Positions 3,165 to 21,037 of a stretch of DNA of 64,000 nt are shown here, one piece after another. The notes under the pieces were generated by a model. It was not told where the DNA came from and searched no databases. It saw only the letters and a program-made list of their open reading frames with translations. A program made the position numbers and the translations under genes. This DNA comes from Dactylosporangium siamense (GTDB lineage: Bacteria > Actinomycetota > Actinomycetes > Mycobacteriales > Micromonosporaceae), in contig NZ_BONQ01000014.1 of NCBI RefSeq assembly GCF_016862795.1, positions 186,001-250,000 of the forward strand, in the 5' to 3' direction. How positions within the stretch are numbered: the stretch's first letter is position 1; each line of letters opens with the position of its first letter.

Positions 3165-3175
3165 CCTCGCACATC

Positions 3176-3209
3176 TTGTTTCTAAGTAGCTTAGTGCTAA
3201 GCTACTTAG
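3176..3209 (+). promoter_or_regulatory. MarR operator (28-bp perfect palindrome) over a leaderless promoter
   Basis: Positions 3182-3194 (CTAAGTAGCTTAG) and 3197-3209 are exact inverted repeats separated by TG. A -35-like TTGTTT (3176-3181) and a -10-like TAAGCT (3198-3203) are 16 bp apart, and the -10 ends 8 nt before the ATG at 3212, so the exporter mRNA is predicted to be leaderless and fully occluded when the palindrome is bound. The symmetry is seen directly; binding by the neighbouring MarR protein is inference. Confidence 0.8.
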
Positions 3210-3211
3210 TC

Positions 3212-5279: not shown

Positions 5280-5395
5280 GCTTCCGTGACGCTGAATCAC
5301 TGGCCGCGATGTCGAGGCGCCCAGGCGCCGGACGGCGCTGCGGATCGCGTGACAGTTGAACAGGTTCCAATATCGACGGAGGCACCACACCGCTC

Positions 5396-5869: not shown

Positions 5870-5884
5870 CAGCAGCGTCATCGG

Positions 5885-5959
5885 CGCTAGTGCGTTGACC
5901 ACCACGGTAGCGGCGTGAGCAGGCCAATACCGGCAACCTATGTGGTCAACGCACTAGCG
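5885..5959. repeat. 18-bp perfect inverted repeat, MITE-like element or terminator
   Basis: Arms 5885-5902 and 5942-5959 (core GTGCGTTGACCAC and complement) are perfect over 18 bp and enclose 39 bp. Both arms contain TA next to GTGCG, so the element can be read as TA-13 bp arm-45 bp-13 bp arm-TA, the TA-flanked layout of IS630/Tc1-type elements, and an IS630 remnant lies 0.6 kb upstream. No T-run follows, which argues against a simple intrinsic terminator, although its place 15 bp after a stop codon is compatible with one. Confidence 0.6.
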
Positions 5960-6070
5960 GGCTGACGACCGAGCCGACGGCCAGGTACCACCGACCCGGC
6001 CGACGTAACGAACGGCACGCTGCGCGGACCGTGGGCAGCGGCCCGCGCCGGGCTTTGCGATCATGCTCGC

Positions 6071-9000
6071 GTGCGTGTCGAGCTGCTGGGTCCGGTCGTG
6101 GCCACCGAGGACGACGGGACGCCGGTGACCGTGCCCGGCGCCCGGGTCCGGATGCTGCTGGCGAGGCTGGCGCTGGAGGAGGGCCGGCCGGTGCACCCCG
6201 ACACCCTGGTCGACGACCTGTGGGGGGAGCAGCCGCCCGCCGGGGCCGCCGCGGCCCTGCAGGGCCTCGCGTCCCGGCTGCGCAGGGTGCTGGGCGGGGC
6301 CGGCGCGGTCCAGTTCGCCGCCGGTGGCTACCGGCTGCCGGTGCGCGGCGAGGACGTGGATGTGCACCGGTTCGAGCAGCTGGCCGCGCAGGGCCGCCGC
6401 GAGCTGGCGGCCGGTCGGGCCAGGGAGGCCGCGTCGACGCTCGCCGCCGCCAGGCGCCTGTGGCGCGGGGCGGCCCTCGCCGACGTGCTGGAGGCGCCGT
6501 TCGCCCGCACCGCGGCGACCCGGCTCGACGAGATGCGGGCCGACGCCGTCGAGGACCTCTTCGAGGCGGAGCTGCAACTGGGCCGTCACGCCGAGGCGCT
6601 GACCGGTCTCGCGGCGGCCGCCGCGGAACGGCCCCTCAGCGAGCGGCTCGCCACGCTCCGCATGCGGGCGCTGTCGGCGGCCGGGCGGCAGTCGGACGCG
6701 CTCGCCGTCTACGAGGAGGTGCGGGCCAGGCTCGGCGACGAGCTCGGCGTCGATCCGACGGTGGAGCTGCGGGAGGTGCACCTGGCGTTGCTCCGCGGGG
6801 AGCTGGACCGGCCCGCGACGCAGGCGGTGGAGGTCGCGCCGAGCCGGTTGCCGGCCAGCGTCACCAGTTTCATCGGCCGGGAGGACGAGCTCGGCCGGGT
6901 CGCCCGGCTGATGGGCGCCGCGCGGCTGGTCACCATCGTCGGGCCCGGCGGCGCCGGCAAGACCAGGCTGTCGCTGGAGGCGGCGCGGCGCGACCCGGCA
7001 TACGAGCGCGGCCGGGTGTGGTTCGTGCCGCTGGCCGGGCTCAGCGAGGACGACCCGGAGCGGCTGGCCGACACCGTCCTCAGCGTGGTCGGCTCGGCGC
7101 ACGGGCGCCTCTACGACGGCGCGAAGCCGATGGCGGCGGCCGTCGACCGGCTCACCGAGATGCTCGACGTCGGCGACGCCGTGCTGATGCTGGACAACTG
7201 CGAGCATCTCGTCGGGGCGGCCGCGCAGCTCGCCGACGAGCTGCTCGGCGGGCTGGCGCAGCTGCGGATCCTCGCCACCAGCCGGGAGCCCCTGGCGATC
7301 ACCGGGGAGGCGTTGTGCCACCTCGGACCCCTCGCACTGCCCGCCGGGGAACCGGACCTCGCCACGGCGGCCGAGGCGGCAGCGGTGCGGTTGTTCGTCG
7401 ACCGGGCCGGAGGTGTACGACCAGGCTTCGCGCTGGACGAGTCCACAGTGGACGCGGTGGTGGAGATCTGCCGGCGGCTGGACGGGATGCCGCTCGCGCT
7501 GGAGCTGGCGGCGGTGAAGCTGCGCTCGATGACGGTCGACCAGGTCGCCCGCCGGCTCGACGACCGGTTCCGGCTGCTGACGTCGGGCAGCCGGGCCGCG
7601 TTGCCGCGGCAGCGGACCCTGCTGGCGATGGTCGAGTGGAGCTGGGACCTGCTCGACGAGGCGGAGCGGACCCTGGCGCGCCGGCTGTCGGCGTTCCCCG
7701 GCGGGGCCGTCCTGACCGCGCTGGAAGCGGTCTGCGCCGACGCGTCCCTGCCGTCGCGGGACGTGCTCTACGTGCTGGACTCGCTGGTGGAGAAGTCCAT
7801 CGTGCAGCAGACCGGCGGCCGGTACCGGATGCTGGAGACGGTTCGTGCGTACGGGGCGGAGCAGCTGGCCGCCTCGGGTGACGACGTGTCGACCCGCTTC
7901 GCCGACTACTACCTGACCCTGGCCGAGCAGCACGAGCCGCTGCTGCGCGGGCGGGAGCAGCTGCGGGCCTTCGCGGTCTTCGACGCCGAGCACGACAACA
8001 TGACGGCGGCGCTGCGTTCCGCCCTGGACGCCGGTGACGTCGCCAGGACGGCGCGCTTCATCAAGGCGCTGTTCTGGTACTGGGGAAACCGCGGCCTGAA
8101 CAACCAGCTCGAGACGTTCATGGGCGCGCTGTCCGACCTCGGTGCCGCCGTGCCGGACGAGGCCCGGCGTGCCGTCGACCTGGTGCGGTCGACGTCCGGC
8201 ACGCAGGAGATCCACCCCGCCCGGCTGCTGTGGATCTCGCAACGGGCGTTCACCCCCGACGCCGCCTCCGACGACGGGCAGTTCCAGCAGTCGCTGACGT
8301 CGCCGGATCCGTGGGTACGGGCCACCGCGCACTGGGCGCACAACTTCACCCTCGTCGAACAGGGCGACCTGGAGGGCGGCGCCGCGGCGCGCGAGGAGGC
8401 GGTGCGCGGCTTCGAGGAGGTCGGTGACCGCTGGGGGCTGGTCATGAGCCTGCTCGCCATCGGGCGGGTGCCGTCGCTGCGCGGCGACTTCGCGACCTCG
8501 ATCGCCGCGTTCGAACGCGCGGTCGCGATCAGCGCCGAGCTCGGCACCGAGGACTACCTGTACTGGACCAGGAACCGGCTGGCCCGGGAACGGATGCGCG
8601 CCGGTGACCTGGACGGCGCCCGGCGCGACCTGCGGGCGATGCAGGACCGGGCCGAGCAGCTGGGCCAGCGACGGCGGGAGGCGGCGATCCTGTTCAGCGT
8701 CGCCGGCTGGCAGCGTCGCGCGGGCGAGCTCGACGCGTCGGAGCGCACGCTCGACACCATGCTGACCCTGGTGGACCGGTTGCCGTATCCGGAGCAGATG
8801 GCCCGGGACCTCATCGACGGCACCCGGCTGATGAACCGGCTCGCGGCGCGCGATGCCGCCGGAGCCCGGGACCTGCTGCCGAGGGCGGTGCGGCCCAACA
8901 TCACCCGCAACCAGAGCAACGGGCTCGCCTGGGCCGCCGAGCAGGTCGGCGAGCTGCTCGCCCTGGAGGACCGGCCGGTCGACGCGGCCACGGTGCTGGG

Positions 9001-9178
9001 CTGGAGCGAGGCGATCCGCGGTGCCTTCGACCACGGCGAGCCGGCGTTGCGCGTCCTGGTCGCCGGGCTCGTCGGACGCCTCGGCGAGGACGGCTACCGC
9101 GACGCGTACGAGCGGGGTGCCCGGCTGTCCCGGCAGGACGCGCTGGACCGGCTGACCGGGACGATCGGCACGCACTGA
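6071..9178 (+). CDS. SARP/AfsR-like transcriptional regulator with NB-ARC ATPase and TPR-like C-terminus
   Basis: 1035 aa. Residues about 1-90 form an OmpR-like winged helix (RVELLGPVVATEDDG, VRMLLARLALEEGRPV), residues 95-245 the bacterial transcriptional activation domain (BTAD), and from about 260 an NB-ARC-type ATPase with Walker A GPGGAGKTR and the sensor AVLMLDNCEHL. The C-terminal half is helical and TPR-like. SARPs bind heptameric direct repeats with 11-bp period near -35 and activate secondary-metabolite or export genes; large AfsR-type forms integrate nucleotide and phosphorylation signals. GTG 6071 is the first plausible start. Exactly such repeats occur at 11770-11832 upstream of the nearby ABC operon, a likely target. 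Confidence 0.9.
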   Translation: MRVELLGPVVATEDDGTPVTVPGARVRMLLARLALEEGRPVHPDTLVDDLWGEQPPAGAAAALQGLASRLRRVLGGAGAVQFAAGGYRLPVRGEDVDVHRFEQLAAQGRRELAAGRAREAASTLAAARRLWRGAALADVLEAPFARTAATRLDEMRADAVEDLFEAELQLGRHAEALTGLAAAAAERPLSERLATLRMRALSAAGRQSDALAVYEEVRARLGDELGVDPTVELREVHLALLRGELDRPATQAVEVAPSRLPASVTSFIGREDELGRVARLMGAARLVTIVGPGGAGKTRLSLEAARRDPAYERGRVWFVPLAGLSEDDPERLADTVLSVVGSAHGRLYDGAKPMAAAVDRLTEMLDVGDAVLMLDNCEHLVGAAAQLADELLGGLAQLRILATSREPLAITGEALCHLGPLALPAGEPDLATAAEAAAVRLFVDRAGGVRPGFALDESTVDAVVEICRRLDGMPLALELAAVKLRSMTVDQVARRLDDRFRLLTSGSRAALPRQRTLLAMVEWSWDLLDEAERTLARRLSAFPGGAVLTALEAVCADASLPSRDVLYVLDSLVEKSIVQQTGGRYRMLETVRAYGAEQLAASGDDVSTRFADYYLTLAEQHEPLLRGREQLRAFAVFDAEHDNMTAALRSALDAGDVARTARFIKALFWYWGNRGLNNQLETFMGALSDLGAAVPDEARRAVDLVRSTSGTQEIHPARLLWISQRAFTPDAASDDGQFQQSLTSPDPWVRATAHWAHNFTLVEQGDLEGGAAAREEAVRGFEEVGDRWGLVMSLLAIGRVPSLRGDFATSIAAFERAVAISAELGTEDYLYWTRNRLARERMRAGDLDGARRDLRAMQDRAEQLGQRRREAAILFSVAGWQRRAGELDASERTLDTMLTLVDRLPYPEQMARDLIDGTRLMNRLAARDAAGARDLLPRAVRPNITRNQSNGLAWAAEQVGELLALEDRPVDAATVLGWSEAIRGAFDHGEPALRVLVAGLVGRLGEDGYRDAYERGARLSRQDALDRLTGTIGTH

Positions 9179-9180
9179 AG

Positions 9181-9213
9181 CGGCGCACACCGGCGTGTTG
9201 CCGATGTGCGCCG
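9181..9213. terminator. Bidirectional hairpin between convergent genes
   Basis: CGGCGCACA (9181-9189) pairs with TGTGCGCCG (9205-9213), with an inner CGGC/GCCG pairing, giving a strong stem in the 46-bp gap between the SARP gene and the ABC permease gene. No T-run is present, as is common in high-GC actinobacteria. Confidence 0.6.
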
Positions 9214-9224
9214 TCTTCCAGCGG

Positions 9225-10007
9225 TCACTTCGATTCGCTGTTGAACTTCGAGGTGGACCAGGAGTAGCCGAGGACGGAGAGCCCGACGCACCAGGCCACC
9301 GCGAGCCAGCCGTTGTGGCCGATCTCGCTGCCGAGCAGCAGCCCGCGGAGGGTCTCGATGGCCGGCGTGAACGGCTGGTACTCGGCGATCGGCTGGAACC
9401 AGCCCGGCATCGCGTGGATCGGGACGAAGGCGCTGGACAGCAGCGGCAGCAGGATGAGCGGCGTGGCGTTGTTGCTGGCCGCCTCGGCGTTCGGGCTGAC
9501 CAGGCCCATCCCCACGGCGATCCAGGTGAGCGCGGTGGCGAAGAGGACGAGCAGGCCGAATGCCGCCAGCCACTCCAGCACGCCGGCGCCGGAGGACCGG
9601 AACCCGATGGCGACGCCGACCGCGCCGACCACGGTCACGCTCATGACGGACTGCAGGACGCTGCCGATGACGTGCCCGACGAGGACCGATCCGCGGTGGA
9701 TGGCCATGGTGCGGAAGCGGGCGATGATGCCCTCGGTCATGTCGTTGGAGACGGACACCGCGGTGCCGACGACCGTGCTGCCGATGGTCATGAGGAGCAG
9801 CCCGGGGACGATGTACCCGATGTACTCCGTCCGCCCGCCGCCGATCCCGGAGCCCATCGCGTCGCCGAAGATGTAGACGAAGAGCAGCAGCAACATGATC
9901 GGCGTCAGCAGCAGGTTCAGCGTGAGCGACGGGTAGCGCCGGGCGTGCAGGAGGTTGCGGCGCAGCATCGTGGACGAGTCGCGGACGGTGAGGGCGAGAG
10001 TGCTCAT
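9225..10007 (-). CDS. ABC-2 type exporter permease (DrrB-like)
   Basis: 260 aa with six hydrophobic segments and the ABC-2 family motif VSNDMTEGIIARFRTMAIHR (about residues 88-107), which in DrrB-type permeases contacts the ATPase. Other typical features are LTPIMLLLLFVYIFG near the N-terminus and the late loop SSAFVPIHAMPGWFQPIAEY. Start ATG 10007 overlaps the stop of the ATPase gene (ATGA), so the two are translationally coupled. The pair should form a 2+2 drug or lipid exporter of the daunorubicin-resistance type; substrate unknown. Confidence 0.92.
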   Translation of the reverse strand: MSTLALTVRDSSTMLRRNLLHARRYPSLTLNLLLTPIMLLLLFVYIFGDAMGSGIGGGRTEYIGYIVPGLLLMTIGSTVVGTAVSVSNDMTEGIIARFRTMAIHRGSVLVGHVIGSVLQSVMSVTVVGAVGVAIGFRSSGAGVLEWLAAFGLLVLFATALTWIAVGMGLVSPNAEAASNNATPLILLPLLSSAFVPIHAMPGWFQPIAEYQPFTPAIETLRGLLLGSEIGHNGWLAVAWCVGLSVLGYSWSTSKFNSESK

Positions 10008-11017
10008 CGGACGGCCTCCTTGGCCTGGGCGGGGACGGTGGCGTGGGCGTTGGTGGCGTGGGCGTTGGTGGTGCGGGCGTCGGTGGCGTGGGCGTCGCCG
10101 GTGAGGGCGAAGAACACGTCGTCGAGGTCGGGGGTGTGCACGGTCAGCTCGTCCGCCTCGATGCCGGCGGAGTCCAGCCGGTCCAGGACGGAGCGCAGCT
10201 CGCGCTGGCTGCCACCGCTGGGGATCTGCAGGGCGAGGGCGTCGTCGTCGCCGGTGGCGTCGCGCAGCGCGAGACCCGCGGACCGGTACGCGATGGGATC
10301 GGTGAAGCGGAGCCGGATGTGCCCGCCGGGAATGAGCCGCTTGAGCTCGCCGGCGGTGCCCTCGGCGGCGATCCTGCCGTGGTTGAGCACCGCGATGCGG
10401 TCGGCGAGCTGGTCGGCCTCCTCGAGGTACTGGGTGGTGAGGAAGACGGTGGCGCCGTCGGTGACCAGCTCGCGGATGATCTGCCACATGTTGTGGCGGC
10501 TGCGGGGGTCGAGGCCGGTGGTGGGTTCGTCGAGGAAGATGATGCTCGGGTTGCCGACCAGCGTCATGGCCAGGTCGAGGCGGCGTTTCATGCCACCGGA
10601 GTAGGTCGACGCGGGCTTCTTCGCCGCGTCGGTGAGGTCGAAGCGGGCCAGGAGGTTCGCGGCGGTGCGGCGGCCCTCCCGCTTGGTCAGGTGGTGCAGG
10701 TCGGCCATGAGGAGCATGTTCTCCTCGCCGGTGATCAGGTTGTCGACGGCGGAGAACTGGCCGGTGACCCCGATCGACGCGCGCACCTTCTGCGGGTCCG
10801 TGGCGAGGTCGTGGCCGCCGATCCGGACGGCGCCGGTGCCCGTGCCCGGGGAGGTGAGCGTGGACAGGATCTTGACGGCGGTGGTCTTGCCGGCGCCGTT
10901 CGGGCCGAGCAGGGAGAAGATGGTGCCTTCCGGGACGGTCAGGTCGACACCGTCGAGCACGACCTTGTCGCCGTAGGACTTGTGGAGGTTGTTCGCTGCG
11001 ATGGCCAGGCTGGACAT
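10004..11017 (-). CDS. ABC exporter ATP-binding protein (DrrA-like)
   Basis: 337 aa ATPase: Walker A LGPNGAGKTT (about residues 38-47), ABC signature YSGGMKRRLD (about 139-148), Walker B SIIFLDEPTTGLDPRS (about 158-173), followed by the DrrA-type C-terminal extension. The tail is odd: TDARTTNAHATNAHAT, encoded by imperfect short repeats around 10043-10100, looks like a recent expansion. Energises the permease encoded by the overlapping downstream gene. GAGGAG precedes the ATG. Second gene of the DUF4097-ATPase-permease operon. Confidence 0.95.
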   Translation of the reverse strand: MSSLAIAANNLHKSYGDKVVLDGVDLTVPEGTIFSLLGPNGAGKTTAVKILSTLTSPGTGTGAVRIGGHDLATDPQKVRASIGVTGQFSAVDNLITGEENMLLMADLHHLTKREGRRTAANLLARFDLTDAAKKPASTYSGGMKRRLDLAMTLVGNPSIIFLDEPTTGLDPRSRHNMWQIIRELVTDGATVFLTTQYLEEADQLADRIAVLNHGRIAAEGTAGELKRLIPGGHIRLRFTDPIAYRSAGLALRDATGDDDALALQIPSGGSQRELRSVLDRLDSAGIEADELTVHTPDLDDVFFALTGDAHATDARTTNAHATNAHATVPAQAKEAVR

Positions 11018-11045
11018 GGTGGGGGGCTCCTCGGTGATGGTGGTG

Positions 11046-11711
11046 TCAGAGGCTGCGGGCGAGGATGTCGCCGTATGCGGTGCTCGCGTGGATGGTCAGG
11101 TCCGGGGTGCCGTCGGTGTTCCTCAGCGCGTTGTGGATGCGACCGTGACCGGTGCCGGCGTCCAGCGAGGCGGAGACACCGTTGGCGGCGCTGATCGACA
11201 CGTCGCCGGCCTGGGTCCGCAGCGTGACGGTGCCGCGCACGGCCTCGGCGACGCGGATGTCGCCCTTCGCGGTGCTGATCTCCGCGGAACCGTTGACCCG
11301 CCCGACGGACACGTCACCGACGAGGGTGGTGAGGCGGACGCTCGCCGCCTCGTCGACCTTGACCGCCCCGTGCGCGGCGTCGAACACGACGTCGCCGTAT
11401 CGCCCGACCGCCCGGAACTCCGCGCTGGCCGCCTTCACCTCGACCTGCGATCCGGCCGGCAGCTCGACCGTCACCTCGACGTATCCCGAACTGCCGAGGA
11501 TCTGATGTTTCGCCGGCGCCACCACCCGCAGGACGCCGTCGCCGTATTCGACCGTGGTCTCCTGCGCCACCTTCACGTCGCGGCTCTTCGACGCGTCCAC
11601 CGGCAGCACCTCAACGGTCGTGTCCGCCCGGTCACCGGCGACGAACCGCACCCGCCCCGCGGGGATGTCCAGCACGGCCGAGATCGGGTTGGGGGTTTCG
11701 AACTGCTGCAT
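11046..11711 (-). CDS. DUF4097-family beta-repeat protein
   Basis: 221 aa made of short repeating beta units such as GDVSVGRVNGSAEISTAKGD and GDVSISAANGVSASLDAGTG, the right-handed beta-solenoid pattern of DUF4097 (putative adhesin-like) proteins. No signal peptide or membrane helix. Genes of this family often sit beside ABC exporters or phage-shock/LiaF-type envelope-stress regulators. It is first in the operon, 28 bp before the ATPase gene, and therefore probably the gene directly under the 11-bp repeats upstream. Molecular role unknown. Confidence 0.85.
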   Translation of the reverse strand: MQQFETPNPISAVLDIPAGRVRFVAGDRADTTVEVLPVDASKSRDVKVAQETTVEYGDGVLRVVAPAKHQILGSSGYVEVTVELPAGSQVEVKAASAEFRAVGRYGDVVFDAAHGAVKVDEAASVRLTTLVGDVSVGRVNGSAEISTAKGDIRVAEAVRGTVTLRTQAGDVSISAANGVSASLDAGTGHGRIHNALRNTDGTPDLTIHASTAYGDILARSL

Positions 11712-11769
11712 CGCCTGCTCCTCTGGCTGTGCGGACCGGTCGTCCGCTGTGCACAGAGATTGGCCGGGC

Positions 11770-11832
11770 CCGCTGACAGCGCCCTAACAGCCCGCTGACA
11801 GCCCCGATCAGCGCGCGTTCACCGCTGACAGC
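11770..11832 (-). promoter_or_regulatory. SARP-type direct repeats, 11-bp period, upstream of the ABC exporter operon
   Basis: On the plus strand CCGCTGACAGC occurs at 11770-11780, 11792-11802 and 11822-11832, with a degenerate copy GCCCTAACAGC at 11781-11791. The first three units are in exact 11-bp register (heptamer GCTGTCA in the operon's orientation). A CAATCT (about 11754-11759), usable as a -10, lies 10-11 bp downstream of the last heptamer. This is the standard architecture for SARP binding near -35. Recognition by the regulator encoded at 6071 is inferred. Confidence 0.7.
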
Positions 11833-12167
11833 GGGCGCGCCCGCCGCACGCCGCCGAGCGCGGGGCTCCAAGGAATCCCCCGCAACGTCACCTCGGGCGC
11901 CCGCCGACGCGACTTCCGGTGGTGAGAAACAGGACCCTTGTCCGCAACGTCTGGCCGTTCGCGCCTCGACGACTGCGCCCGGCTCATGCCGGTCGGGTCA
12001 GGCCGGCGGCCCCCGGATGTCGGCGCCTTTGGGACGGTGCCCCCCATCGTCTGGACCCGACCGCTGGTTGTGATAATCGCAACGAGACGTTGCCAATGCG
12101 GTCCACTCGGAGCACGCATGCCGTGGGAGGATGGGACCGCCACACCACGCGAAGGGGCATCCCTAGG
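11833..12167. other. Intergenic region, leader and promoter area of the peptide gene
   Basis: No supported gene. It contains GATAAT (12072-12077), a plausible -10, and directly after it a perfect inverted repeat GCAACG-AGA-CGTTGC (12079-12093), which could be an operator for the peptide/HExxH operon. The leader to the ATG at 12168 would be about 85 nt. Confidence 0.4.
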
Positions 12168-12386
12168 ATGGATGGAGCGCCGACCGATATCGAGTCCGAG
12201 CTGCTGGACTTGTCGTCGGTCACCATCGCGACGCTACGAAAAGCAGACCTGGCGGGTCTGGACGCGGCGACCACCCGGGTCGTCGCGCGCATTGCCGACA
12301 CCGAAGGCAGCATCAGCGGCTACAGCGGTTCGTTCTCCGGACGGATGAGGCCGGATTCTGAGGCGCCGGCGGACCGTGTCGACTGA
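12168..12386 (+). CDS. FxSxx-COOH-like small peptide, putative RiPP precursor
   Basis: 72 aa starting at ATG 12168 with AGGGG about 10 nt upstream. The N-terminal half (ESELLDLSSVTIATLRK, then a helical stretch to about residue 45) matches the leader pattern of FxsA/FxSxx-COOH peptides: an acidic start, LxDLSxVxxxxLR and a helical arginine-containing segment. The C-terminal part GSISGYSGSFSGRM has two aromatics, Tyr52 and Phe56, in Ser/Gly-rich sequence, a reasonable modification core, but the strict FxSxx terminus is missing and 12 further residues follow. The stop overlaps the start of the HExxH gene by 11 bp, so both are co-translated. Precursor role is inferred from context and leader similarity. 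Confidence 0.65.
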   Translation: MDGAPTDIESELLDLSSVTIATLRKADLAGLDAATTRVVARIADTEGSISGYSGSFSGRMRPDSEAPADRVD

Positions 12387-14232
12387 CGTCGGTTCTCTTG
12401 GCTCATTCCATTCCGTATCAGTCCGCGATTTCCAGTCGCTCGCCCATGGCGCCGGGGACGAAGCGCTCATTGCCGCCCTGTTGCAGTCGGAGCGAAGCTG
12501 GCGGCTGACACTGGTGTTCAGCCTTCTCGGCTCCGTCTCCGACGGCACCATGGTTGACAGCCCGCTGGCCGGTCTGGACACCGCTTGGGCGCTTCTCGCC
12601 CGGGCGTCCGATGTCGATCGCGATGTCACCGAGGACCTGATGGGCCGTCCGGAGGTGGGCGTCTGGGCGTCGCACACGTTGCGACGGCTGCGGCGCAACC
12701 CGCCGTCGGACATCCCGCTGTGGGCCGAGCTCGGATACCTGCACGCGTTGGCTGCGGCGGCCGCGATCCGGACCGGCCTGACAGCCGAACTCGACATCCC
12801 GGTCCGGCACGGGACCGCGGTCATTCCCACCGTCGGGTCGGCGATGCTGCCGCTGGACAGCCCGTTCGGCACGGCGCACGTCCGGACGGGCCCTGGCGGC
12901 ACCGAGATCTCCGCTTCGGGTGCGGTGGTGCGGATCGCCACCGATTGCCCCGCCTGGCACGAGCCGATCCGCGTGCGGGTGGGCCACGACGAGACCGATC
13001 TCCGGGTGGAGCTCGCGGACCGCGACGCGTACCGGGACCTCCGCGGGCCCTCCGCGCCACGGCCGTTGCATCCGGCTGAGACGGCCCGTTGGCGAAGCAT
13101 GCTCAGCGAGGCATGGGCGATCCTCATCCGGGACCATCAGCCGGCCGCCAGGGCGATCGCCGCCGGCATCCGGGTCCTGTCGCCGGTGCCCGCCAAGGAG
13201 CCGTTCCGGCAGCTCTCCGCCTCCGGTGGTGAGGCCTTCGGCGGCATGCTGCTGTCGTTTCCGGACGACTCCACCCAGCTCGCCGTCACGCTGGTGCACG
13301 AGTTTCAGCATCAGAAGCTCGGAGCGCTGCTCCACCTGTTGACCCTGACCACCGACGAGCCGTCAGTCCGGTACTACGCCGGATGGCGCGATGATCCCCG
13401 GCCCGCGGGTGGTCTCCTGCAGGGCGCCTACGCGTTCGCCGGGGTGACGGAGTTCTGGCGGACACACCGGTTCCGTTGCCGACCGGCCGCAGCGGCCCTG
13501 GCCCATTTCGAGTTCGCCTTGTGGCGCCGGCAGACGCTGCGGGTGCTCCGCACGCTGGCAGGATCGGGTCGCCTGACCGGCCACGGCAGCCGGTTCGTCG
13601 GCGACCTCCTGCAGCAGGTCGAGGAGCACGAGCGCGAGCCGGTGCCGAGGGTCGAGGCCACGTTGGCCGCCGACCTGGCGCTCGACCACGAGGCGCTGTG
13701 GCGGGCACACAACATCGTCGTCCCGGACCTCGTTGTCGCGGATCTGGTCGCCGCTTGGGCACGCGGAGCCTCGGCACCGATCCCGGCCGAGGCATCGTCG
13801 GCCGTTCGGGCGACCCCTGACGTGGGACTGCTGGACAGTCGTGCGGTGCTCGCCAGGTATCGCTTGACGCGAGCATCGGCCTTCGAACAGTTCCAGAATG
13901 ACCCGGAGACGGTGAGCGCGAGCGTCCTGGGCGCGTCCGCGGCCGATGTCGCCCTCATCGCCGGGGATCGGGAAGCAGCTGGTCGCGCATACCGGGTTCG
14001 GGTCGAAACCGCGTCGGACGACGTTCACGGCCTGGTGGGGCTGGGCCTGTCACGGCCGGACCGGACCGCCGACCCGGTGGCCCGGGCGCTGCTCCGGCGG
14101 CCCGAGCTGGTGCGCGCGATGGCCGCCCGGTTGTCCGTTTCCGGCGCCGTGGACGTCGTCAGGCTCGCTGCCTGGATCGGCGCTGCGCTCCCGCCGGACC
14201 GGCCCGACCCGATCGGATGGCGGGCGGTCTGA
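12376..14232 (+). CDS. HExxH-motif domain protein, putative peptide-modifying enzyme
   Basis: 618 aa from GTG 12376. The motif LVHEFQHQKLGALLHL places H308-E309-x-x-H312, followed by WRDDPRPAGGLLQGAYAFAG, the conserved block of the HEXXH domain usually fused to or next to the radical SAM protein FxsB in FxSxx-COOH clusters. Related HExxH proteins act as 2-oxoglutarate/iron-dependent peptide beta-hydroxylases rather than proteases. Here the domain is free-standing, with about 200 N-terminal residues of unknown function and a helical C-terminus. Coupled to the upstream peptide gene; convergent to the SAV_2336/NB-ARC/TPR gene with a 9-bp gap. Substrate is presumably the 72-aa peptide. Confidence 0.75.
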   Translation: MSTDVGSLGSFHSVSVRDFQSLAHGAGDEALIAALLQSERSWRLTLVFSLLGSVSDGTMVDSPLAGLDTAWALLARASDVDRDVTEDLMGRPEVGVWASHTLRRLRRNPPSDIPLWAELGYLHALAAAAAIRTGLTAELDIPVRHGTAVIPTVGSAMLPLDSPFGTAHVRTGPGGTEISASGAVVRIATDCPAWHEPIRVRVGHDETDLRVELADRDAYRDLRGPSAPRPLHPAETARWRSMLSEAWAILIRDHQPAARAIAAGIRVLSPVPAKEPFRQLSASGGEAFGGMLLSFPDDSTQLAVTLVHEFQHQKLGALLHLLTLTTDEPSVRYYAGWRDDPRPAGGLLQGAYAFAGVTEFWRTHRFRCRPAAAALAHFEFALWRRQTLRVLRTLAGSGRLTGHGSRFVGDLLQQVEEHEREPVPRVEATLAADLALDHEALWRAHNIVVPDLVVADLVAAWARGASAPIPAEASSAVRATPDVGLLDSRAVLARYRLTRASAFEQFQNDPETVSASVLGASAADVALIAGDREAAGRAYRVRVETASDDVHGLVGLGLSRPDRTADPVARALLRRPELVRAMAARLSVSGAVDVVRLAAWIGAALPPDRPDPIGWRAV

Positions 14233-14241
14233 CGGCCCCGC

Positions 14242-17200
14242 TCAGAGCGGCATCAGGTCGATGTCGCAGTTCGCGCGGATGCCCTCCACCGCCGCGACGG
14301 TCGCCGGATGGTCCGGGCCGAGCACTGCCCGGAACCTTGCCATCGTGTCCTCCAGAAGGGCGACGGCGTCCGACTCCCGGCTGAGCCCACGCAGGTCGAG
14401 GCCGAGGTTGTGAGCGCAGCACAGCGTGGTGGGATGGTTGACGCCAAGCTGGCTGCGGCACCGGCGCAGCATGTCGAAGTCGAGGTCGTGGGCCGCCTGG
14501 AGCGCTCCGAGCGCGTAGTAGGCACTGGCGAGGTTGATCCCGCTCGCCAGCACCAGGGCATGCTGCTCGTCGAGCCGATCGGCCAGCACCCGATGGGCGC
14601 GCTCGCCCCAGATGCGAGCGTCCTCGGTCCCCCCGGACAGTCGCAGGATGATGGCGTGGTCCACTTCGGCGCCGGCGGTGTGCGGGTGCGTGGGTCCGTA
14701 CAGCTCCCGCAGGCGGTCCACGGCGAACGCTCCGGCCACGAGCGCGGCTGAGAGGTCACCGGTGACCCGCAGGTCGATCGAGGACGTCAGCGTTGCCAGC
14801 ACGGTGTCCGGATGCCTGTCCCCGTACCGGTACCTGTAGCGCTTGAGCACGTCGGTCGAGCTCTGCAACGCACCGGCCTGGTCACCGGCCTTGCGCCGGA
14901 AGATGGCCAGGCTGTGGGACTGCCGGAGCAGGTCCGGATGGTCCTCGTCACCGACCAGCCGGCGAACGGCGTCGACGACGTTCTCCTGCTGGTTGCGTGC
15001 TGTGATCCAGTCTCCGAGCTCGCGACTGTCGAGGTTGACGCCGCCGTAGGTGTCCAGGGTGATGAGGTGGTTCGTTCCGTACATCAGGATGAGACGGTTG
15101 TGTGTCTGCCTGCCCACCTGGAGGGCCTGGTCGTACCTGCCCGACAGACGCATGCTGACCGCCAGGTTGTGTGCCGCCCTCAGGGTCTCCGGAACCTCGT
15201 CGCCGAAGTTGCGTTGCGCTCGTTCGTACACCGTGCTCGACTGATCGAGGGCGCTGGCGAAGTCGCCGGCGATGCGGTAGTCGGCTGCCACCGCACCGAT
15301 CGCACTGAGCGTCTCCTGGCTGTTCTCCCCGAAGGTCTCACGGTTCAGCTCGACGGTGCGCGCGTTGATACGGGCGGCGGCGGGGTAGTCACCGACGACG
15401 AAGTACATGAACCCGAGCCAGTACGCCATGTTCAACGTGTCGGGATGGTCCTCACCCAGTGCCTCGGTCCACGCGTCGTGGGCGCGAAGGGCAAAGTCGC
15501 GGGCGCCGGTCAGGTCTCCCCACCGCCACAGGTACTTCGCCTCGTCCAGGATCAGGGTGTGCACTCGTTCGTCAACCGAGCGCTCCGCCGCCGACGCGAT
15601 GATGTGAGGGTAGAGCTCGGCGAACAGCGGCCATTTCTGTGCCTCGTCCGGGAATCCCGGGTTGGCGCCGGCCAGCAACAGGTGCGCGGTCTGTCGCATG
15701 GCCTCCCGATCCTCGGCGCTCAACTGTGCGATCAGCACCCGCTGGGCGAGCCTGTGCAACTGAAACGAGTTCGTCCGGTAGTCCATCCGTGCCAGGGAGA
15801 ATCGGCTGATCGACCGGATCGCCTGCGTCAGCCGATTCTTGTTGCGGAGCACGCGGTCGAGGTCGGGATGCACATTCGCGGTTCCGGAGCGCTGCAGCAG
15901 TGCCTCGCTGATGGGCTCCGGCGCCAGGAACGCGACGACCTGCAGCAGGCGCAGTGCCTCCCGGTCGCGTTTCTCCACCGCGTCGAGGGCGATGTTCCAG
16001 GCGGCGGCCACAAAGTCCGGGAAGTCCTGCCCACCCACGTCGTCCTGGAAGTAGGCAAGGCTTCCGTTGAGCTTTTCGAGGTACTCGTCGGCAGGCATTT
16101 CGGTCGCCGCGCGATACGCCGCCGCCAGCTCGATGGCCAGCGGCAGGTCACCCAGGGCGGCGGACAACCGGTCGGCCTCGTCGAACAGCAGCGCCGGGCT
16201 CCGCTTGCGGAGCAGCTCGATGCTCTCGTGCCGATCGAACACGTCGACCCGCAGGCCATCGGCCACATCTGTCCACTGTGGATTTCGGGACGTCACGACG
16301 ATGCTGCCGGTTCCTTCCAGGGGGAAGAACCGCTGGACCTCCTCCGGCGACTCGGCATTGTCGAAGATCAACAGCCAGTTGGAGTGCGGCCGGCCGAGCC
16401 GCAACGCGTCAAGGACGAGGGGCACCGCGGTGGTAGCCGTCGCGGTGGCGGAGATGCCGAGCTTCTGGGCCAGCTCCACCAGGGCCGACGTGATCTGTGC
16501 CGGGCGTTCGGCCGGGATCCACCAGATCAGGTCGTAGTCCTTGAGCCGCTGATGGACGTACTCGATCACGAGCTGGGACTTGCCCACGCCGCCCGATCCG
16601 TGCACGGCCTCCGGTAGCACCGCTGTCGTGCCCGACCGCAGGCGCCGGTGCAGCGCGTCGAGCAGGTCGCGCCGGCCGGTGAAGTTGAGATTCCGGGGCG
16701 GGAGGTTGTTGGTGATGGCGTCGGGCCGGCCGTCGGACGCCGGGTCGGTCCGGGGGTTGGCGACGCCGGCCGACCCGGCGCCTGCTTCCGGCAGTGAATC
16801 AGCGCCCGAGGTAGGCAAGTACGATGATTCAGACATGATCCGCTCCGTAGATGCGCCCGGGTTGAGGTGAACTGGGTCGACATTTCGGCCGAGCATGGGC
16901 AACGGTCCCCCGATCACCTGTTTGAGGTGTCGGTGGGCCACGAGATGAGGACCGCTCAGGGCCTGGTAGACCTTCAGCTCGACCCGCGCGTGCGGACGGC
17001 TTGCCGGGTCCACCTGATGGGCGGCCACACTGTGCGGATGTCGCACCCGGCTGCCGAGCCCGCGCACGCCGGGAACATCGCCGGCCAGTATCTCCTCGAC
17101 CAGATCCTGCACCGCGATCGTGCGGTCGCGCTGTCCCAGTGACAACAGGCGTTCCCGGACACCGTCGGCGAATTCATAGGCGATGGCGCCCCGGTCCCGG

Positions 17201-18516
17201 CGGGCGCCCGGCAGGCCGGTCGGCTGGATCAGATCGCTCGACAGCACCTCGACCAGGTGGCTCGGGCCGGCCCTCGGCGTGAACCGCTGGATGGCCCAGA
17301 TCATCTCGTCGGTCAGCGGAGCGGCCGCGAGCAGGGTCGCCAACACCCGTGCGGTCGGCGACCGCGAGGCCCGGAACTCGATGACGAGGTCCGACGCCGA
17401 GGCGCCGCCACTGGCCGGTGGTGGCTGGTAATGCGGCGAGGTGATCACCGCCGGCATGGTGACCGGACCCGTTCCGGTGCCGGCCACCAGCCGGGACCAC
17501 CGCCTCAGCCACCCCTCGCCGAGTTCGAGCACGGGAATGGCCACCGTGCCGGGCTCCGGGAAGTCGGACGCTCCCCGCCTGCCGAGGCCGCTCTCCGTCC
17601 AGGACATGCTTCCGGTGCACCTGGCCGGCCCGTCCGGATGCCACGTGACCGCGGTGGTGGCGAGCGTCTGCCGCCAGAGCTCCTGCGGCATCAGGTGCAC
17701 GGTGGTGACGACCATGCTCGCCGCCCACCTCGCCGCGACCCGTTGCACGGCACCGCGGCGCCACAGCCCGGACCAGCTCTGGGTCAGCACGAAGACCATC
17801 CGCCGGCCCGTGAGGTCGACCACGCTCGCGGCCGTCTCAGGCGCGCCGCCCGGACCCGACCGGAGCATGACGCCGCCGTGCTCGCCCTCGACCAGCCATC
17901 GCACCTGGATGGTGCGGAACACCGCCTGGCGGCGCAGGCCGGCCACGAAGTCGGCGATGGCGTCGTGCCAGGCGTCGATCAGCGGACTCTCGTCGATGAC
18001 GACGACCGCGTCCCAGCGGCGTTCGGCGGTCGGTCGCAGGACCGGCGTCCATCGCCGGGTGACGACACCCAGCTCGGCCGTCGACTCCTCGTCGAGTTCG
18101 CGGGTCACGGGCGACGCCACAACCAGGCGCAGCGCGCCCAGCGTGTCGGCCCGGCTCGGCACGCGGTGCGACCCGACCACGGATCTGGCTGCGAGCCGGC
18201 CCTCCCAGACCGCGGATCCGGTCTCGCCGGAGCCGTCCGGCGGGACCGGAACGAAGTAGGGACCGTCGTCCGCCGGCGGCCGGGCGGTGGGCAGGCCCGG
18301 ACCCCCGGTGGGCGGATCCGCGACGTCGACGACGTCGTCCGGTGACTTCCGCGGCGCCTCGGTCGCGGCGCCGTCGTCCACAGCGGCCCGGCCGAACCCC
18401 GGACGGCTGGCCAGCCACAGCGCGTCGGCGATCTCGAACCCGGCGAGCCCGGCCACCGTGGGCCACTGGCGGGGAACCCCCGGCGACGGACGCGCGGACG
18501 GCGTGGAATCGACCAC
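14242..18516 (-). CDS. SAV_2336/vWA-like + NB-ARC + TPR protein (FxsT-like STAND NTPase)
   Basis: 1424 aa. The N-terminus contains FEIADALWLA and, at about residue 170, WDAVVVIDESPLIDAWHDA, the SAV_2336 N-terminal domain, which looks vWA-like with a DxS start but a degenerate MIDAS. From about 600 comes an NB-ARC STAND ATPase: NFTGRRDLLDALH, Walker A VHGSGGVGKSQL (about 635-648), Walker B-like NWLLIFDNAES, and GSIVVTSRNPQW. Residues about 960-1424 are tandem TPRs with the recurrent GxxHPxTL block. Such proteins are labelled FxSxx-COOH system TPR proteins. GTG 18516 overlaps the ATPase stop by one base (TAGTG), giving coupling; ATG 18546 is the alternative. Probably the nucleotide-switched scaffold of the system. 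Confidence 0.85.
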   Translation of the reverse strand: MVDSTPSARPSPGVPRQWPTVAGLAGFEIADALWLASRPGFGRAAVDDGAATEAPRKSPDDVVDVADPPTGGPGLPTARPPADDGPYFVPVPPDGSGETGSAVWEGRLAARSVVGSHRVPSRADTLGALRLVVASPVTRELDEESTAELGVVTRRWTPVLRPTAERRWDAVVVIDESPLIDAWHDAIADFVAGLRRQAVFRTIQVRWLVEGEHGGVMLRSGPGGAPETAASVVDLTGRRMVFVLTQSWSGLWRRGAVQRVAARWAASMVVTTVHLMPQELWRQTLATTAVTWHPDGPARCTGSMSWTESGLGRRGASDFPEPGTVAIPVLELGEGWLRRWSRLVAGTGTGPVTMPAVITSPHYQPPPASGGASASDLVIEFRASRSPTARVLATLLAAAPLTDEMIWAIQRFTPRAGPSHLVEVLSSDLIQPTGLPGARRDRGAIAYEFADGVRERLLSLGQRDRTIAVQDLVEEILAGDVPGVRGLGSRVRHPHSVAAHQVDPASRPHARVELKVYQALSGPHLVAHRHLKQVIGGPLPMLGRNVDPVHLNPGASTERIMSESSYLPTSGADSLPEAGAGSAGVANPRTDPASDGRPDAITNNLPPRNLNFTGRRDLLDALHRRLRSGTTAVLPEAVHGSGGVGKSQLVIEYVHQRLKDYDLIWWIPAERPAQITSALVELAQKLGISATATATTAVPLVLDALRLGRPHSNWLLIFDNAESPEEVQRFFPLEGTGSIVVTSRNPQWTDVADGLRVDVFDRHESIELLRKRSPALLFDEADRLSAALGDLPLAIELAAAYRAATEMPADEYLEKLNGSLAYFQDDVGGQDFPDFVAAAWNIALDAVEKRDREALRLLQVVAFLAPEPISEALLQRSGTANVHPDLDRVLRNKNRLTQAIRSISRFSLARMDYRTNSFQLHRLAQRVLIAQLSAEDREAMRQTAHLLLAGANPGFPDEAQKWPLFAELYPHIIASAAERSVDERVHTLILDEAKYLWRWGDLTGARDFALRAHDAWTEALGEDHPDTLNMAYWLGFMYFVVGDYPAAARINARTVELNRETFGENSQETLSAIGAVAADYRIAGDFASALDQSSTVYERAQRNFGDEVPETLRAAHNLAVSMRLSGRYDQALQVGRQTHNRLILMYGTNHLITLDTYGGVNLDSRELGDWITARNQQENVVDAVRRLVGDEDHPDLLRQSHSLAIFRRKAGDQAGALQSSTDVLKRYRYRYGDRHPDTVLATLTSSIDLRVTGDLSAALVAGAFAVDRLRELYGPTHPHTAGAEVDHAIILRLSGGTEDARIWGERAHRVLADRLDEQHALVLASGINLASAYYALGALQAAHDLDFDMLRRCRSQLGVNHPTTLCCAHNLGLDLRGLSRESDAVALLEDTMARFRAVLGPDHPATVAAVEGIRANCDIDLMPL

Positions 18517-19553
18517 TACAGCCTGCCTGGGGCGAGCCTGCGCCATACCGCGTCGAAGAGCCTGTCCCACTCGCTCGCCGAGGCCAGCGAGTCGACGCCC
18601 GACAGGGCGAGGAACACCGCATTGAGCAGTTGGTCGGCAGCGACGGTCCCGTGCTCCCCGCGCCGCTCGACGAACGTCCTGATGAGTTCCCGGACGTGCT
18701 CGTCGGACACCGACAGATGCGCCGCGACCAGGTCAGCCAGGGCGGACTCGTCGAGGTCCGGCAGGTCGAGCCGCAGACAGCGACGCAGGAACGGCGCGGG
18801 GAAGTCGCGCTCCCCGTTGGAGGTGATGACGATGACCGGGAACGCGTGGCAGGTCACCACGCCGTCCCGGATCGTGGCCCGGCGGCCCGGGTCGGCGATG
18901 TGCACCTCGACCGCTTCCTGCCGGCTCCGCAGCCGGATCAGCTCCGGCACGGTGTAGGTGCCGTCCTCGAAGACGTTGAGCAGGTCGTTCGGCAGGTCGA
19001 CGTCGCACTTGTCGAGCTCGTCGATGAGCAGCACACGTGGACGGGCGTGCGGAAGCAACGCCGTGCCGAGTGGTCCGAGGTGGATGAAGTCCCCGACAAG
19101 CGATGCGCCGGTGGTGGCGTCACCGGCGTCGGCCGCCGCCTGCGCCCGACCGATCGCGTCGTAGTCGTAGAGTCCGGAGCGCATCGTCGACCTCGACGTG
19201 ATCGACCAGTGCAGGACCCGGCCGAGCCCGAGGTCGCGGGCGATCTGATAGGCGAGACCGGACTTCCCCACGCCCGGATTGCCGGTCACCAGGAGAGGAC
19301 GGCGCAGCATCAGTGCGGCGTTGATGATGTCGAGCTGGTCGCGCTTCGGGCGCATTGCCGCAGTCCGGCCGAGCCTGCGTGCGGCCTCGTCGGGATCATC
19401 GGGGGGCGGGAGGAGATCGGGACCACCGCGAAAGTCACGCCACGGCGGCGGGGCCGGCCAATCGGTCTCGGCGGCGATCCCGACCGACCGGTCGGATCCG
19501 CCATAGATCCACCAGCCGGATCCCGCCGCACCGTGGTTTCCGTTGCCGCTCAT
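18516..19553 (-). CDS. MoxR-like AAA+ ATPase
   Basis: 345 aa. Walker A TGNPGVGKSGL (residues 90-100), Walker B VLLIDELDKCD (174-184), a sensor-1-like VIVITSNGERDFP, and an arginine-finger context PFLRRCLRLDLP, as in MoxR ATPases. The N-terminal about 60 residues are proline- and glycine-rich and probably flexible. MoxR ATPases pair with vWA proteins as chaperone or switch complexes. ATG 19553 overlaps the upstream VMAP stop (ATGA) and its own stop overlaps the next start, so the three genes form one tightly coupled operon. Confidence 0.92.
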   Translation of the reverse strand: MSGNGNHGAAGSGWWIYGGSDRSVGIAAETDWPAPPPWRDFRGGPDLLPPPDDPDEAARRLGRTAAMRPKRDQLDIINAALMLRRPLLVTGNPGVGKSGLAYQIARDLGLGRVLHWSITSRSTMRSGLYDYDAIGRAQAAADAGDATTGASLVGDFIHLGPLGTALLPHARPRVLLIDELDKCDVDLPNDLLNVFEDGTYTVPELIRLRSRQEAVEVHIADPGRRATIRDGVVTCHAFPVIVITSNGERDFPAPFLRRCLRLDLPDLDESALADLVAAHLSVSDEHVRELIRTFVERRGEHGTVAADQLLNAVFLALSGVDSLASASEWDRLFDAVWRRLAPGRL

Positions 19554-21037
19554 CCGCGGGCCTCTCCGGTAATCGGGCCGGCCGCGGCACGGTCTGGCAG
19601 ACGATCGGGGTCGTCCCACAGAATCACGATTCCATTGCCGACGTGGTAATGCCGCTGCGCCGGGTCCTCTCCCCAGGCCCGTTTTCTCAACTCTGCAACA
19701 TGAATCGGAAGTTCCGCCAGCCCTGAGCCCAAAAGGGCATCACGGATCATCGATGTGACCGTTTCGCATCGTTGCGGGCGTGGATACGTCCGGCGATGCC
19801 AGAGGACCGCGGGAAGTCCGGCCCGGAGTCCGGCCAGGAGTTGCCGTTCGCCCGCGCTTCCGAGTTGCGGCGGTTCGCTGAGCATCATGACCACGGCTCC
19901 GCCACCGAGGCTTGCCTCGACCTGAACGGCCCCGCTTCCGTCCGCGGCGCAATGCACCACATGGTCGGCGACCCGGGCAGTCGCCCGTCGCTGCCACCGG
20001 TTTCGCCAGACCCGGTGCCACTCCGTTGACCGCAGGCGATTCAAGCTCCGGACGTAGACCGGATATTTGATGGCCAGTGGGGTCGCCTCGACCGATTGGA
20101 GCTCCCGTCGAAATTCCTCGACCGGCAGGTCGAGAAGCGGATCCGGGAGAATGAACTCGATCGTCACCGGCCCCATGTGCTCCGCCCATCTGCGCTCCGC
20201 TTCGGCGACGATCTCCACCACGGTGGCCTCGAGGTCCGATTCGAGCACCCGGCGGTCCTCTCCCCGCACCGGCTGCCACACGGTCGCCCATTGGCGCCAG
20301 TGCGAGACCAGGTACGAGTCGCCGTCACCCCCGTACTTGTCGAACTGGATGATCAGGTATGCCATGTCGGCGGGCGCCGCCGGCACGGCCGACTCGGCCG
20401 GGTGCTCGGCGCGGTAGTCGGCCAGTTCCCACCGGTTCGAGAGGGTGGCCAGCAGTTCCCGCAGCCGTGCGCCGGCCGCCGCGGAGAGCAGCGGGGGGAT
20501 TCTCTCCAGAAAGCGGAGGCAGGGCAGCACCCCCTCGCTGGCGTTCTCGCCGGCCAGACTGGCGAACAACTGCCATGCGGTGGTGCAGTAGCCGGGCTGT
20601 TCGGTCATCCGGATCTCGATCGCCCACCGGTGCAGGTCACCGGTCGTCGCACGGAGCACCTGCAGTTCTTCCCGGAGCCAGAGGACATCGACGTCGGCGA
20701 ACAGGTCGACAACGTGCCATTCGTCCACGCAGCGAAGGATGGCGGCCGTATCCGTGCTCTCGGGATCGAGCAGGTTGACACTCTCGGCGATTGATCGCAT
20801 CCCATCGGCCCGCCGGGAGCAATGGTTGACCACCTTGATCACGCGGACGTGAAACGAACTGTGGCCGACCGCAGGAACGCCGGACCCCAGCGTCAGGCTC
20901 AACTCCTGCAGAAACAGCGACCAGCCGTCCGCGTCCTGAAGCACCGACGCCGCCGCCAGCGCCTGGATCAGCTCCTTGCGGATGCGGCGCCGGTGGGCGA
21001 TCGCCTCGGCGTTGGGCTGCTGATCCGTTTCAGGCAC
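19550..21037 (-). CDS. VMAP-C domain protein with N-terminal effector-associated domain
   Basis: 495 aa from GTG 21037. Residues about 18-115 (RKELIQALAAASVLQDADGW, FHVRVIKVVNHCSRRADGM) fit an effector-associated domain of the EAD2 type, a small helical adaptor that recruits effectors by like-like contact. The second half (from about 220: AYLIIQFDKYGG, VTIEFILPDPLLDLPVEEFR, W-rich strands, and the end YHVGNGIVILWDDPDRLP) fits the C-terminal domain of vWA-MoxR-associated proteins. In ternary vWA-MoxR-VMAP systems this protein links the ATPase switch to effectors. No protease, TIR or other effector is fused here; an EAD2-bearing effector could be elsewhere in the genome. First gene of the operon. 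Confidence 0.75.
   Translation of the reverse strand: MPETDQQPNAEAIAHRRRIRKELIQALAAASVLQDADGWSLFLQELSLTLGSGVPAVGHSSFHVRVIKVVNHCSRRADGMRSIAESVNLLDPESTDTAAILRCVDEWHVVDLFADVDVLWLREELQVLRATTGDLHRWAIEIRMTEQPGYCTTAWQLFASLAGENASEGVLPCLRFLERIPPLLSAAAGARLRELLATLSNRWELADYRAEHPAESAVPAAPADMAYLIIQFDKYGGDGDSYLVSHWRQWATVWQPVRGEDRRVLESDLEATVVEIVAEAERRWAEHMGPVTIEFILPDPLLDLPVEEFRRELQSVEATPLAIKYPVYVRSLNRLRSTEWHRVWRNRWQRRATARVADHVVHCAADGSGAVQVEASLGGGAVVMMLSEPPQLGSAGERQLLAGLRAGLPAVLWHRRTYPRPQRCETVTSMIRDALLGSGLAELPIHVAELRKRAWGEDPAQRHYHVGNGIVILWDDPDRLPDRAAAGPITGEARG

What the first reader, a model, noticed from the sequence alone, without database searches (positions are those of the whole stretch)
12168..12386. 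FxSxx-like leader with a non-canonical core and C-terminal extension
The leader half fits FxsA peptides, but the expected FxSxx terminus is absent; instead a Y52-S-G-S-F56-S-G core precedes 12 charged residues. This could be a new precursor class whose tail is removed or whose core is hydroxylated rather than cross-linked.
Basis: partly seen in the sequence, partly recalled or inferred. Interest (0 to 1): 0.75.

Follow-up and report, generated by a model that had tools for sequence, protein, structure and literature searches.

The report
Hydroxylase-coupled peptide with a new tail
A small bacterial gene that overlaps the gene of a probable oxygen-using enzyme encodes a peptide whose usual end has been replaced by a new conserved core and tail; it sits beside what looks like a bacterial immunity or cell-death gene set, and its chemistry can be tested directly.

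Summary
The peptide is real. The 72-codon gene at 12168-12386 has relatives in Micromonosporaceae; among 12 tailed peptides found through their enzymes (window included), Tyr52 and Ser55 are kept in 12 and Phe56 in 11 (21 distinct peptides after a peptide search: 20, 21 and 20). Leader and core are under purifying selection, the tail more weakly. The gene overlaps by 11 bases a standalone HExxH gene whose predicted structure matches the solved alpha-ketoglutarate-dependent oxygenases SjiH and ChlB. It is not a damaged FxSxx precursor: on a tree of 74 HExxH enzymes the tailed peptides belong to one clade whose neighbours carry RxD-type precursors (...SGYNPQRLD-COOH), the kind Kaur et al. (2020) tied to VMAP-MoxR-STAND conflict systems. 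The RxD end was apparently replaced by an SF-containing core and a mostly acidic tail. No FxsB radical SAM gene was found near the 74 loci, and 7 of 20 genomes with tailed peptides have none over the model's cut-off, so hydroxylation rather than FxsB cross-linking is favoured. The modified residue, and whether the tail is cut off (as PflC and PosC do at ARMD), are unknown. Verdict: new, clade-restricted variant of a known kind.

The parts
12168..12386 (+). Gene of the 72-residue precursor peptide (stop 12384-12386)
   Evidence: Open frame; relatives; start position supported by alignment
12189..12308 (+). Leader, residues 8-47 (IESELLDLS...), shared with RxD-type precursors
   Evidence: Profile comparison with RxD-type peptides aligns residues 5-55 (98.5%, E 2.3e-15); dN/dS 0.24 in seven Micromonospora peptides, 0.31 in 12
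12309..12353 (+). Core, residues 48-62 (SISGYSGSFSGRMRP), with Tyr52 (12321-12323) and Phe56 (12333-12335)
   Evidence: Tyr52 20 of 21, Ser55 21 of 21, Phe56 20 of 21 distinct tailed peptides (L120 included); dN/dS 0.20 and 0.28
12354..12383 (+). Tail, residues 63-72, mostly acidic in relatives; replaces the RxD-COOH end
   Evidence: Net acidic in 18 of 20 distinct tails, net zero in 2; dN/dS 0.39 and 0.53 for residues 63-69, 0.90 and 1.37 for the last three codons
12376..12386 (+). 11-base overlap of peptide stop and HExxH gene start
   Evidence: Sequence; same geometry in 10 of 12 tailed loci, TTGA overlap in the other two
12376..14232 (+). Standalone HExxH enzyme, 618 aa; HEFQH at 13297-13311, WRDDPRP at 13384-13404
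   Evidence: TIGR04267 E 2.9e-49; model pLDDT 92.9; matches SjiH Z 30.6 and ChlB HExxH domain Z 21.6
14242..18570 (-). FxsT: SAV_2336 N-terminal domain, NB-ARC-like NTPase and TPRs, convergent to the pair
   Evidence: NF040586 E 1.8e-241 and NF041121 E 2.7e-78; TPR and DUF7779 in Pfam, NB-ARC just below its cut-off
18516..19619 (-). MoxR-like AAA+ ATPase
   Evidence: AAA_5 E 1.3e-6
19550..21037 (-). VMAP protein with EAD2, VMAP-M0 and VMAP-C domains
   Evidence: Pfam E 7.8e-11, 4.1e-11 and 2e-42

Best explanation
12168-12386 encodes the substrate of the HExxH enzyme encoded directly after it. The leader (about residues 8-47) is bound by the enzyme, which uses Fe(II), O2 and alpha-ketoglutarate to hydroxylate one or more residues of the conserved Y52-x-x-S55-F56 core, most likely a beta-carbon of Tyr52 or Phe56. 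No FxsB cross-link is made. The modified peptide works inside the cell as a signal or cofactor of the convergent vWA/STAND (FxsT)-MoxR-VMAP-EAD2 conflict system rather than being exported. It is a derived, clade-restricted form of the RxD-type precursor whose RxD-COOH end was replaced by the SF core and tail. Shown by computation: the gene and its conservation, the enzyme family and fold, the clade, the lack of a detected FxsB, the neighbourhood. Inferred: that the enzyme acts on the peptide, the site and chemistry, the intracellular role.
For: Related peptides before 72 of 73 HExxH genes. Enzyme: TIGR04267, model close to SjiH and to the HExxH domain of ChlB, the latter titled an alpha-ketoglutarate-dependent oxygenase; HExxH and WRxDxRP shared with both, and H308, E309, H312, W337, R338, D340, R342 invariant in 50 sequences. 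Core conserved and constrained. No FxsB hit in 74 loci; 7 of 20 host genomes have none over the cut-off, five of these with a single HExxH enzyme. Characterised members hydroxylate His, Asp, Phe, Gln and Pro (passage, PMC13060819). Conflict-system neighbours. No exporter family shared in place across tailed loci.
Against: No experiment. Published substrates do not include Tyr (passages seen). Phe56 is Ser in L042 and Tyr52 is Phe in L117. All 20 host genomes hold some radical SAM protein matching FxsB below the cut-off, as do 11 of 14 control genomes, so another radical SAM enzyme is not excluded, and 13 of 20, including the window's genome, do have a true FxsB elsewhere. The window peptide itself ends in RVD-COOH, an RxD end that its tailed relatives lack; this may be chance from the overlap with the enzyme start, or a working end.
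Confidence: 0.6

Rival explanations
1. The enzyme's main job here is oxidative cutting: it oxidises a small residue in or after the core, splits the backbone and removes the tail, leaving an amide end, as PflC and PosC do at ARMD tails. This can go together with hydroxylation.
For: PflC/PosC are HExxH enzymes that remove ARMD by alpha-carbon oxidation of Ala (Gly works partly), also when the motif is not at the very end (PMC12636437, parts 1-4 of 6 read). Gly51 (19 of 20) and Gly54 (16 of 20) are mostly kept. Many relatives end in RxD-COOH (32 of 73), as ARMD does.
Against: Tailed peptides have no ARMD; Gly54 is Pro in 4 of 20 and Gly51 Asp in 1. The tail is less conserved than the core. In PosA, Arg, Met and Asp of ARMD were individually dispensable, so the RxD likeness may mean little.
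Confidence: 0.25
2. The tail has no role as peptide: it is the result of lengthening the frame into the enzyme start for translational coupling and a ribosome-binding site.
For: 11-base overlap in 10 of 12 and TTGA overlap in 2 of 12 tailed loci, absent from the RxD-type loci looked at; last three codons near neutral; GGAGG just before the enzyme ATG in several Micromonospora loci.
Against: Residues 63-69 have dN/dS 0.39-0.53; 18 of 20 tails are net acidic. The window and L023 have no good ribosome-binding site at the usual distance.
Confidence: 0.4
3. The HExxH protein is a metallopeptidase that cuts the precursor hydrolytically, as proposed by Kaur et al. 2020.
For: Published proposal (section 24); PflC hydrolyses leader-less peptide.
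Against: The two best structural matches are HExxH proteins of the oxygenase family (Z 30.6 and 21.6), while peptidases listed score below Z 5; WRxDxRP is shared with them.
Confidence: 0.06

Closest known systems
RxD-motif peptides of VMAP-linked peptide-processing systems (Kaur et al. 2020, eLife 9:e52696, PMC7159879; section 24 read whole, passages elsewhere)
   Same: Small leader-bearing peptide before a zincin-like HExxH gene, with vWA/AP-ATPase/TPR protein, MoxR ATPase and VMAP
   Different: RxD end replaced by SF core and tail; gene overlaps the enzyme gene; enzyme read here as a hydroxylase, not a peptidase
FxsA / FxSxx-COOH precursors (TIGR04268) with FxsB radical SAM enzyme
   Same: Weakly similar leader: 4 of 12 tailed members match TIGR04268, best E 0.0008
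   Different: No FxSxx end, no FxsB nearby, window peptide itself has no match
PflA/PosA with PflC/PosC (PMC12636437, preprint)
   Same: Standalone HExxH enzyme with a leader-bearing precursor, C-terminal tail beyond the modified stretch
   Different: NHLP-type leader, Gln core, ARMD tail and MNIO-nitroreductase partner; leader kinship not found (2 of 12 members match the Os17 NHLP family at best E 0.041)
SjiH (22ob, 22nu) and the HExxH domain of ChlB (8s5f)
   Same: Fold and HExxH/WRxDxRP motifs
   Different: [quoted passage not shown] here the enzyme is standalone with a C-terminal extension beyond residue 436 not covered by SjiH

Membership tests
RxD-type precursor of peptide-processing systems | RxD at the C-terminus | tested here: inconclusive
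   Window peptide ends RVD, but none of the other 20 tailed peptides ends in RxD; the class as a whole lacks it
RxD-type precursor of peptide-processing systems | Leader homologous to RxD-type precursors, upstream of HExxH gene | tested here: met
   98.5%, E 2.3e-15; position
RxD-type precursor of peptide-processing systems | vWA protein fused to AP-ATPase and TPRs, with VMAP | tested here: met
   FxsT with SAV_2336 domain, NB-ARC-like region and TPRs, VMAP; the equation of SAV_2336 with the vWA of Kaur et al. is inferred
FxSxx-COOH precursor (TIGR04268) | Match to the model over its cut-off | tested here: not met
   No match at E <= 1 for the window peptide; 4 of 12 tailed members match, best E 0.0008 (scores not shown)
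FxSxx-COOH precursor (TIGR04268) | FxSxx at the C-terminus | tested here: not met
   Sequence
FxSxx-COOH precursor (TIGR04268) | FxsB radical SAM gene nearby | tested here: not met
   No tblastn hit at E <= 1e-8 in the window or 73 loci
Alpha-ketoglutarate HExxH hydroxylase (TIGR04267) | Model match and fold | tested here: met
   E 2.9e-49, 167 bits over cut-off 40; Z 30.6 and 21.6
Alpha-ketoglutarate HExxH hydroxylase (TIGR04267) | Fe(II)/alpha-ketoglutarate-dependent hydroxylation of a peptide | not testable with these tools
   Needs expression and mass spectrometry
PflC/PosC-type oxidative cleavage | ARMD-like Ala-containing element after the modified stretch | tested here: not met
   No ARMD in the window peptide or the other tailed peptides; cleavage at another small residue remains possible

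The most novel reading that the evidence does not exclude
The pair is an O2- and alpha-ketoglutarate-dependent switch of a bacterial STAND/caspase death system: hydroxylation of the Y-x-x-S-F core, perhaps with oxidative removal of the tail, sets whether the peptide is bound by the vWA/TPR protein FxsT and so whether the effectors fire; like hydroxylase-controlled signalling in animals in logic, not in homology.
Probability: 0.12. Interest if true: 0.85.

Novelty: new variant of a known kind. Interest (0 to 1): 0.5.

Why it matters
In the section I read, Kaur et al. (2020) describe the peptides of these conflict systems from sequence and take the partner for a peptidase. This clade offers a compact test pair: two overlapping genes, a conserved aromatic core, and five genomes among the 20 examined with exactly one HExxH enzyme and no FxsB over the cut-off. 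It could show whether such systems use peptide hydroxylation, oxidative cleavage or both. The many RxD-COOH ends (32 of 73), beside the ARMD ends of PflA/PosA, also raise the question whether RxD is a substrate end shared by standalone HExxH enzymes, which this clade has lost.

Tried and rejected
FxSxx origin: rejected, because the enzyme tree and the profile comparison place the class with RxD types, while the tailed alignment against the own-genome FxSxx-like precursor is not significant (1.1% probability, E 0.046). Acidic type of Kaur et al. [quoted passage not shown] Neighbouring ABC transporter as exporter: not conserved; ABC-type genes occur in 4 of 12 tailed loci at scattered places (frames under 90 aa or of unusual base make-up were filtered out, so absence is soft). 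PADLOC: no match for peptide, HExxH, FxsT or VMAP; the MoxR-like ATPase matches IetA at E 0.00047 and the caspase of L023 a caspase model at 9.1e-9. Promoter scan of 11712-12400: no promoter-like site on the + strand.

Tail-specific enzyme residues: 15 positions separate tailed from other enzymes (position 164 rests on two tailed rows); four (284, 293, 322, 333) lie near the HExxH helix in sequence. I did not test this against chance and draw nothing from it. The weak match of 2 of 12 members to the Os17 NHLP family is treated as chance.

Papers: the listings showed no title that describes this tailed class; Kaur et al.'s source data could not be opened (supplement cap zero), so they may have seen it. 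The paper on fused radical SAM/HExxH proteins by Morinaka, Zhang, Nicolet and co-workers is known to me from recall and as cited in PMC12636437; I did not read it. PMC12257519 and PMC12707348 were seen in passages only, PMC8195603 in one passage.

Full report
Observation. The frame at 12168-12386 is as described and ends 11 bases inside the next gene. 14 residues follow the YSGSFSG core, 7 of them charged, not "12 charged residues". The peptide does not match the FxSxx-COOH model at E <= 1.

The gene is real. A search of 151 genomes gave strong relatives in two other genomes, one with two copies (seven further matches at E 3e-4 to 0.007 are weak, and two of them, L007 and L010, are RxD-type precursors; for L021, the same place as L007). 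A scan of named genomes with six HExxH enzymes confirmed 332 places, kept the best 80 and returned 73 loci, so this sample leans towards the query. In 72 of 73, all but L081, a related peptide frame lies on the same strand within 700 bases upstream; the profile used had been built from 12 sequences, 11 of them from these loci. A search of 354 family genomes with the tailed alignment matched 36 (these include RxD-type precursors). The 12 tailed peptides found through their enzymes (window and 11 loci) keep Tyr52 and Ser55 in 12 of 12 and Phe56 in 11 of 12. With those found by the peptide search there are 20 distinct sequences plus L120, 21 in all: Ser55 21, Tyr52 20 (Phe in L117), Phe56 20 (Ser in L042); that search used the peptides themselves, so it favours conserved ones. 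The matches at G185:C1:1549773 and G403:C9:2551035 were not fetched and are not counted. Pooled pairwise dN/dS: leader 0.24, core 0.20, residues 63-69 0.39, last three codons 0.90 in seven Micromonospora peptides; 0.31, 0.28, 0.53 and 1.37 in all 12. The pairs are not independent, and the figures are descriptive.

The enzyme. The overlapping gene encodes a TIGR04267 protein (E 2.9e-49). Its model, from 50 aligned sequences, has mean pLDDT 92.9. The best solved matches are SjiH (22ob, Z 30.6, 401 residues, 2.7 A) and the HExxH domain of ChlB, titled a novel alpha-ketoglutarate dependent oxygenase (8s5f, Z 21.6, 307 residues, 3.1 A); the next row has Z 7.7. HExxH and WRxDxRP are shared by all three, and H308, E309, H312, W337, R338, D340 and R342 are invariant in the 50 rows. 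A hydroxylase is therefore the default reading. Published members hydroxylate His, Asp, Phe, Gln and Pro (passage), and PflC/PosC also remove an ARMD tail oxidatively.

Where it comes from. On a tree of 74 enzymes (quick search, midpoint root) the 12 tailed rows are one side of a branch with SH-aLRT 100. The nearest outside rows are Micromonosporaceae enzymes with SISGYNPQRLD(G) peptides (support 91 for that grouping), then SITSGYNPQR[IL]D (93) (peptides). Tailed against RxD-type peptides, profile comparison gives 98.5% and E 2.3e-15 over residues 5-55. Of the 73 loci, 32 peptides end exactly in RxD, 3 have RxD near the end, 13 end PQR[DE]-like, 11 are tailed, 13 are other and 1 has none (the classes are my own patterns). 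The simplest history is an RxD ancestor whose end was replaced. Four tailed peptides (L038, L116, L117, L118) keep GYNP or GFNP before SF, as an intermediate would. The 11-base overlap with the enzyme gene is present in 10 of 12 tailed loci, a TTGA overlap in the other two, where the TTG start is inferred; the nine further peptides were not checked for this. The window tail happens to end in RVD-COOH; the other 20 tailed peptides do not end in RxD.

Not an FxsB system. With the window genome's own FxsB as query, none was found at E <= 1e-8 in the window or in the held flanks (10 kb or less) of the 73 loci. Among 20 genomes with tailed peptides, 13 have an FxsB over the model's cut-off somewhere and 7 do not; all 20, and 11 of 14 controls, have weaker radical SAM matches. 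Five of the 7 have exactly one HExxH match. In the window's genome a separate contig carries FxsB, a second HExxH enzyme and an FxSxx-like precursor ending FGSFAE, below the model's cut-off.

Surroundings. Convergent to the pair lie FxsT (SAV_2336 domain, NB-ARC-like region, TPRs), a MoxR-like ATPase and a VMAP with EAD2, the arrangement that Kaur et al. give for RxD-type or acidic-type peptides (section 24). An FxsT match lies somewhere in 70 of 73 loci (not L062, L080, L084; the first two records are short) and in the window; only best hits were listed, so in loci with two systems it may belong to the other one, and in L030 it lies at the far end. A caspase-EAD2 gene stands upstream in 9 of 12 tailed loci, not in the window, L027 or L030; six RxD-type Micromonosporaceae loci have an alpha/beta hydrolase-EAD2 gene upstream instead (domains: EAD2 in each caspase-like protein scanned, the Pfam caspase domain only in that of L016/L023). 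The window's genome has caspase-EAD2 genes on two other contigs, one directly beside an FxsT-like gene with no peptide or HExxH match in the 18 kb read. No exporter family is shared in place across the tailed loci, which favours an intracellular role; that is inference.

Mechanism. Committed reading: leader-guided hydroxylation of the Y-x-x-S-F core, the product serving as an internal signal of the conflict system (0.6). Tail removal by the same enzyme is the main rival or addition (0.25). A tail kept only for translational coupling is compatible with either (0.4). A classical peptidase is unlikely (0.06).

Novelty and interest. The kind is known (peptide-processing module of VMAP systems, HExxH hydroxylases); the variant is new as far as the searches under Tried and rejected show. 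Interest 0.5: well defined and directly testable, chemistry and function unknown.

Noticed in passing
L132 (own genome, C29) 5867-9505: An FxsT-like gene (59% identity to the AP-ATPase/TPR part of the window's FxsT) directly convergent with a caspase-EAD2 gene, with no peptide or HExxH gene between and only a VMAP fragment: the peptide module seems dispensable or lost there.
   Followed up: partly
L019 (own genome, C15) 2168-10210: A second system with FxsB radical SAM, standalone HExxH enzyme, FxsT-like and MoxR-like genes and an FxSxx-like precursor ending FGSFAE that misses the TIGR04268 cut-off.
   Followed up: partly
L024:17453-17887 (-) and six other tailed loci: A 144-residue protein family without Pfam match, beside VMAP in 7 of 12 tailed loci.
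   Followed up: no
L037, L043, L046-L048, L053, L054, L058, L062, L066, L069, L082, L085 and others: Streptomyces loci with two divergent precursor peptides of different end types (one PQR[DE]-like, one RFD-like) close together, apparently paired systems.
   Followed up: no
window 9225-11711 (-): DUF4097 protein with ABC transporter ATPase and permease genes, divergent from the peptide operon; not conserved at that place in the tailed loci.
   Followed up: partly
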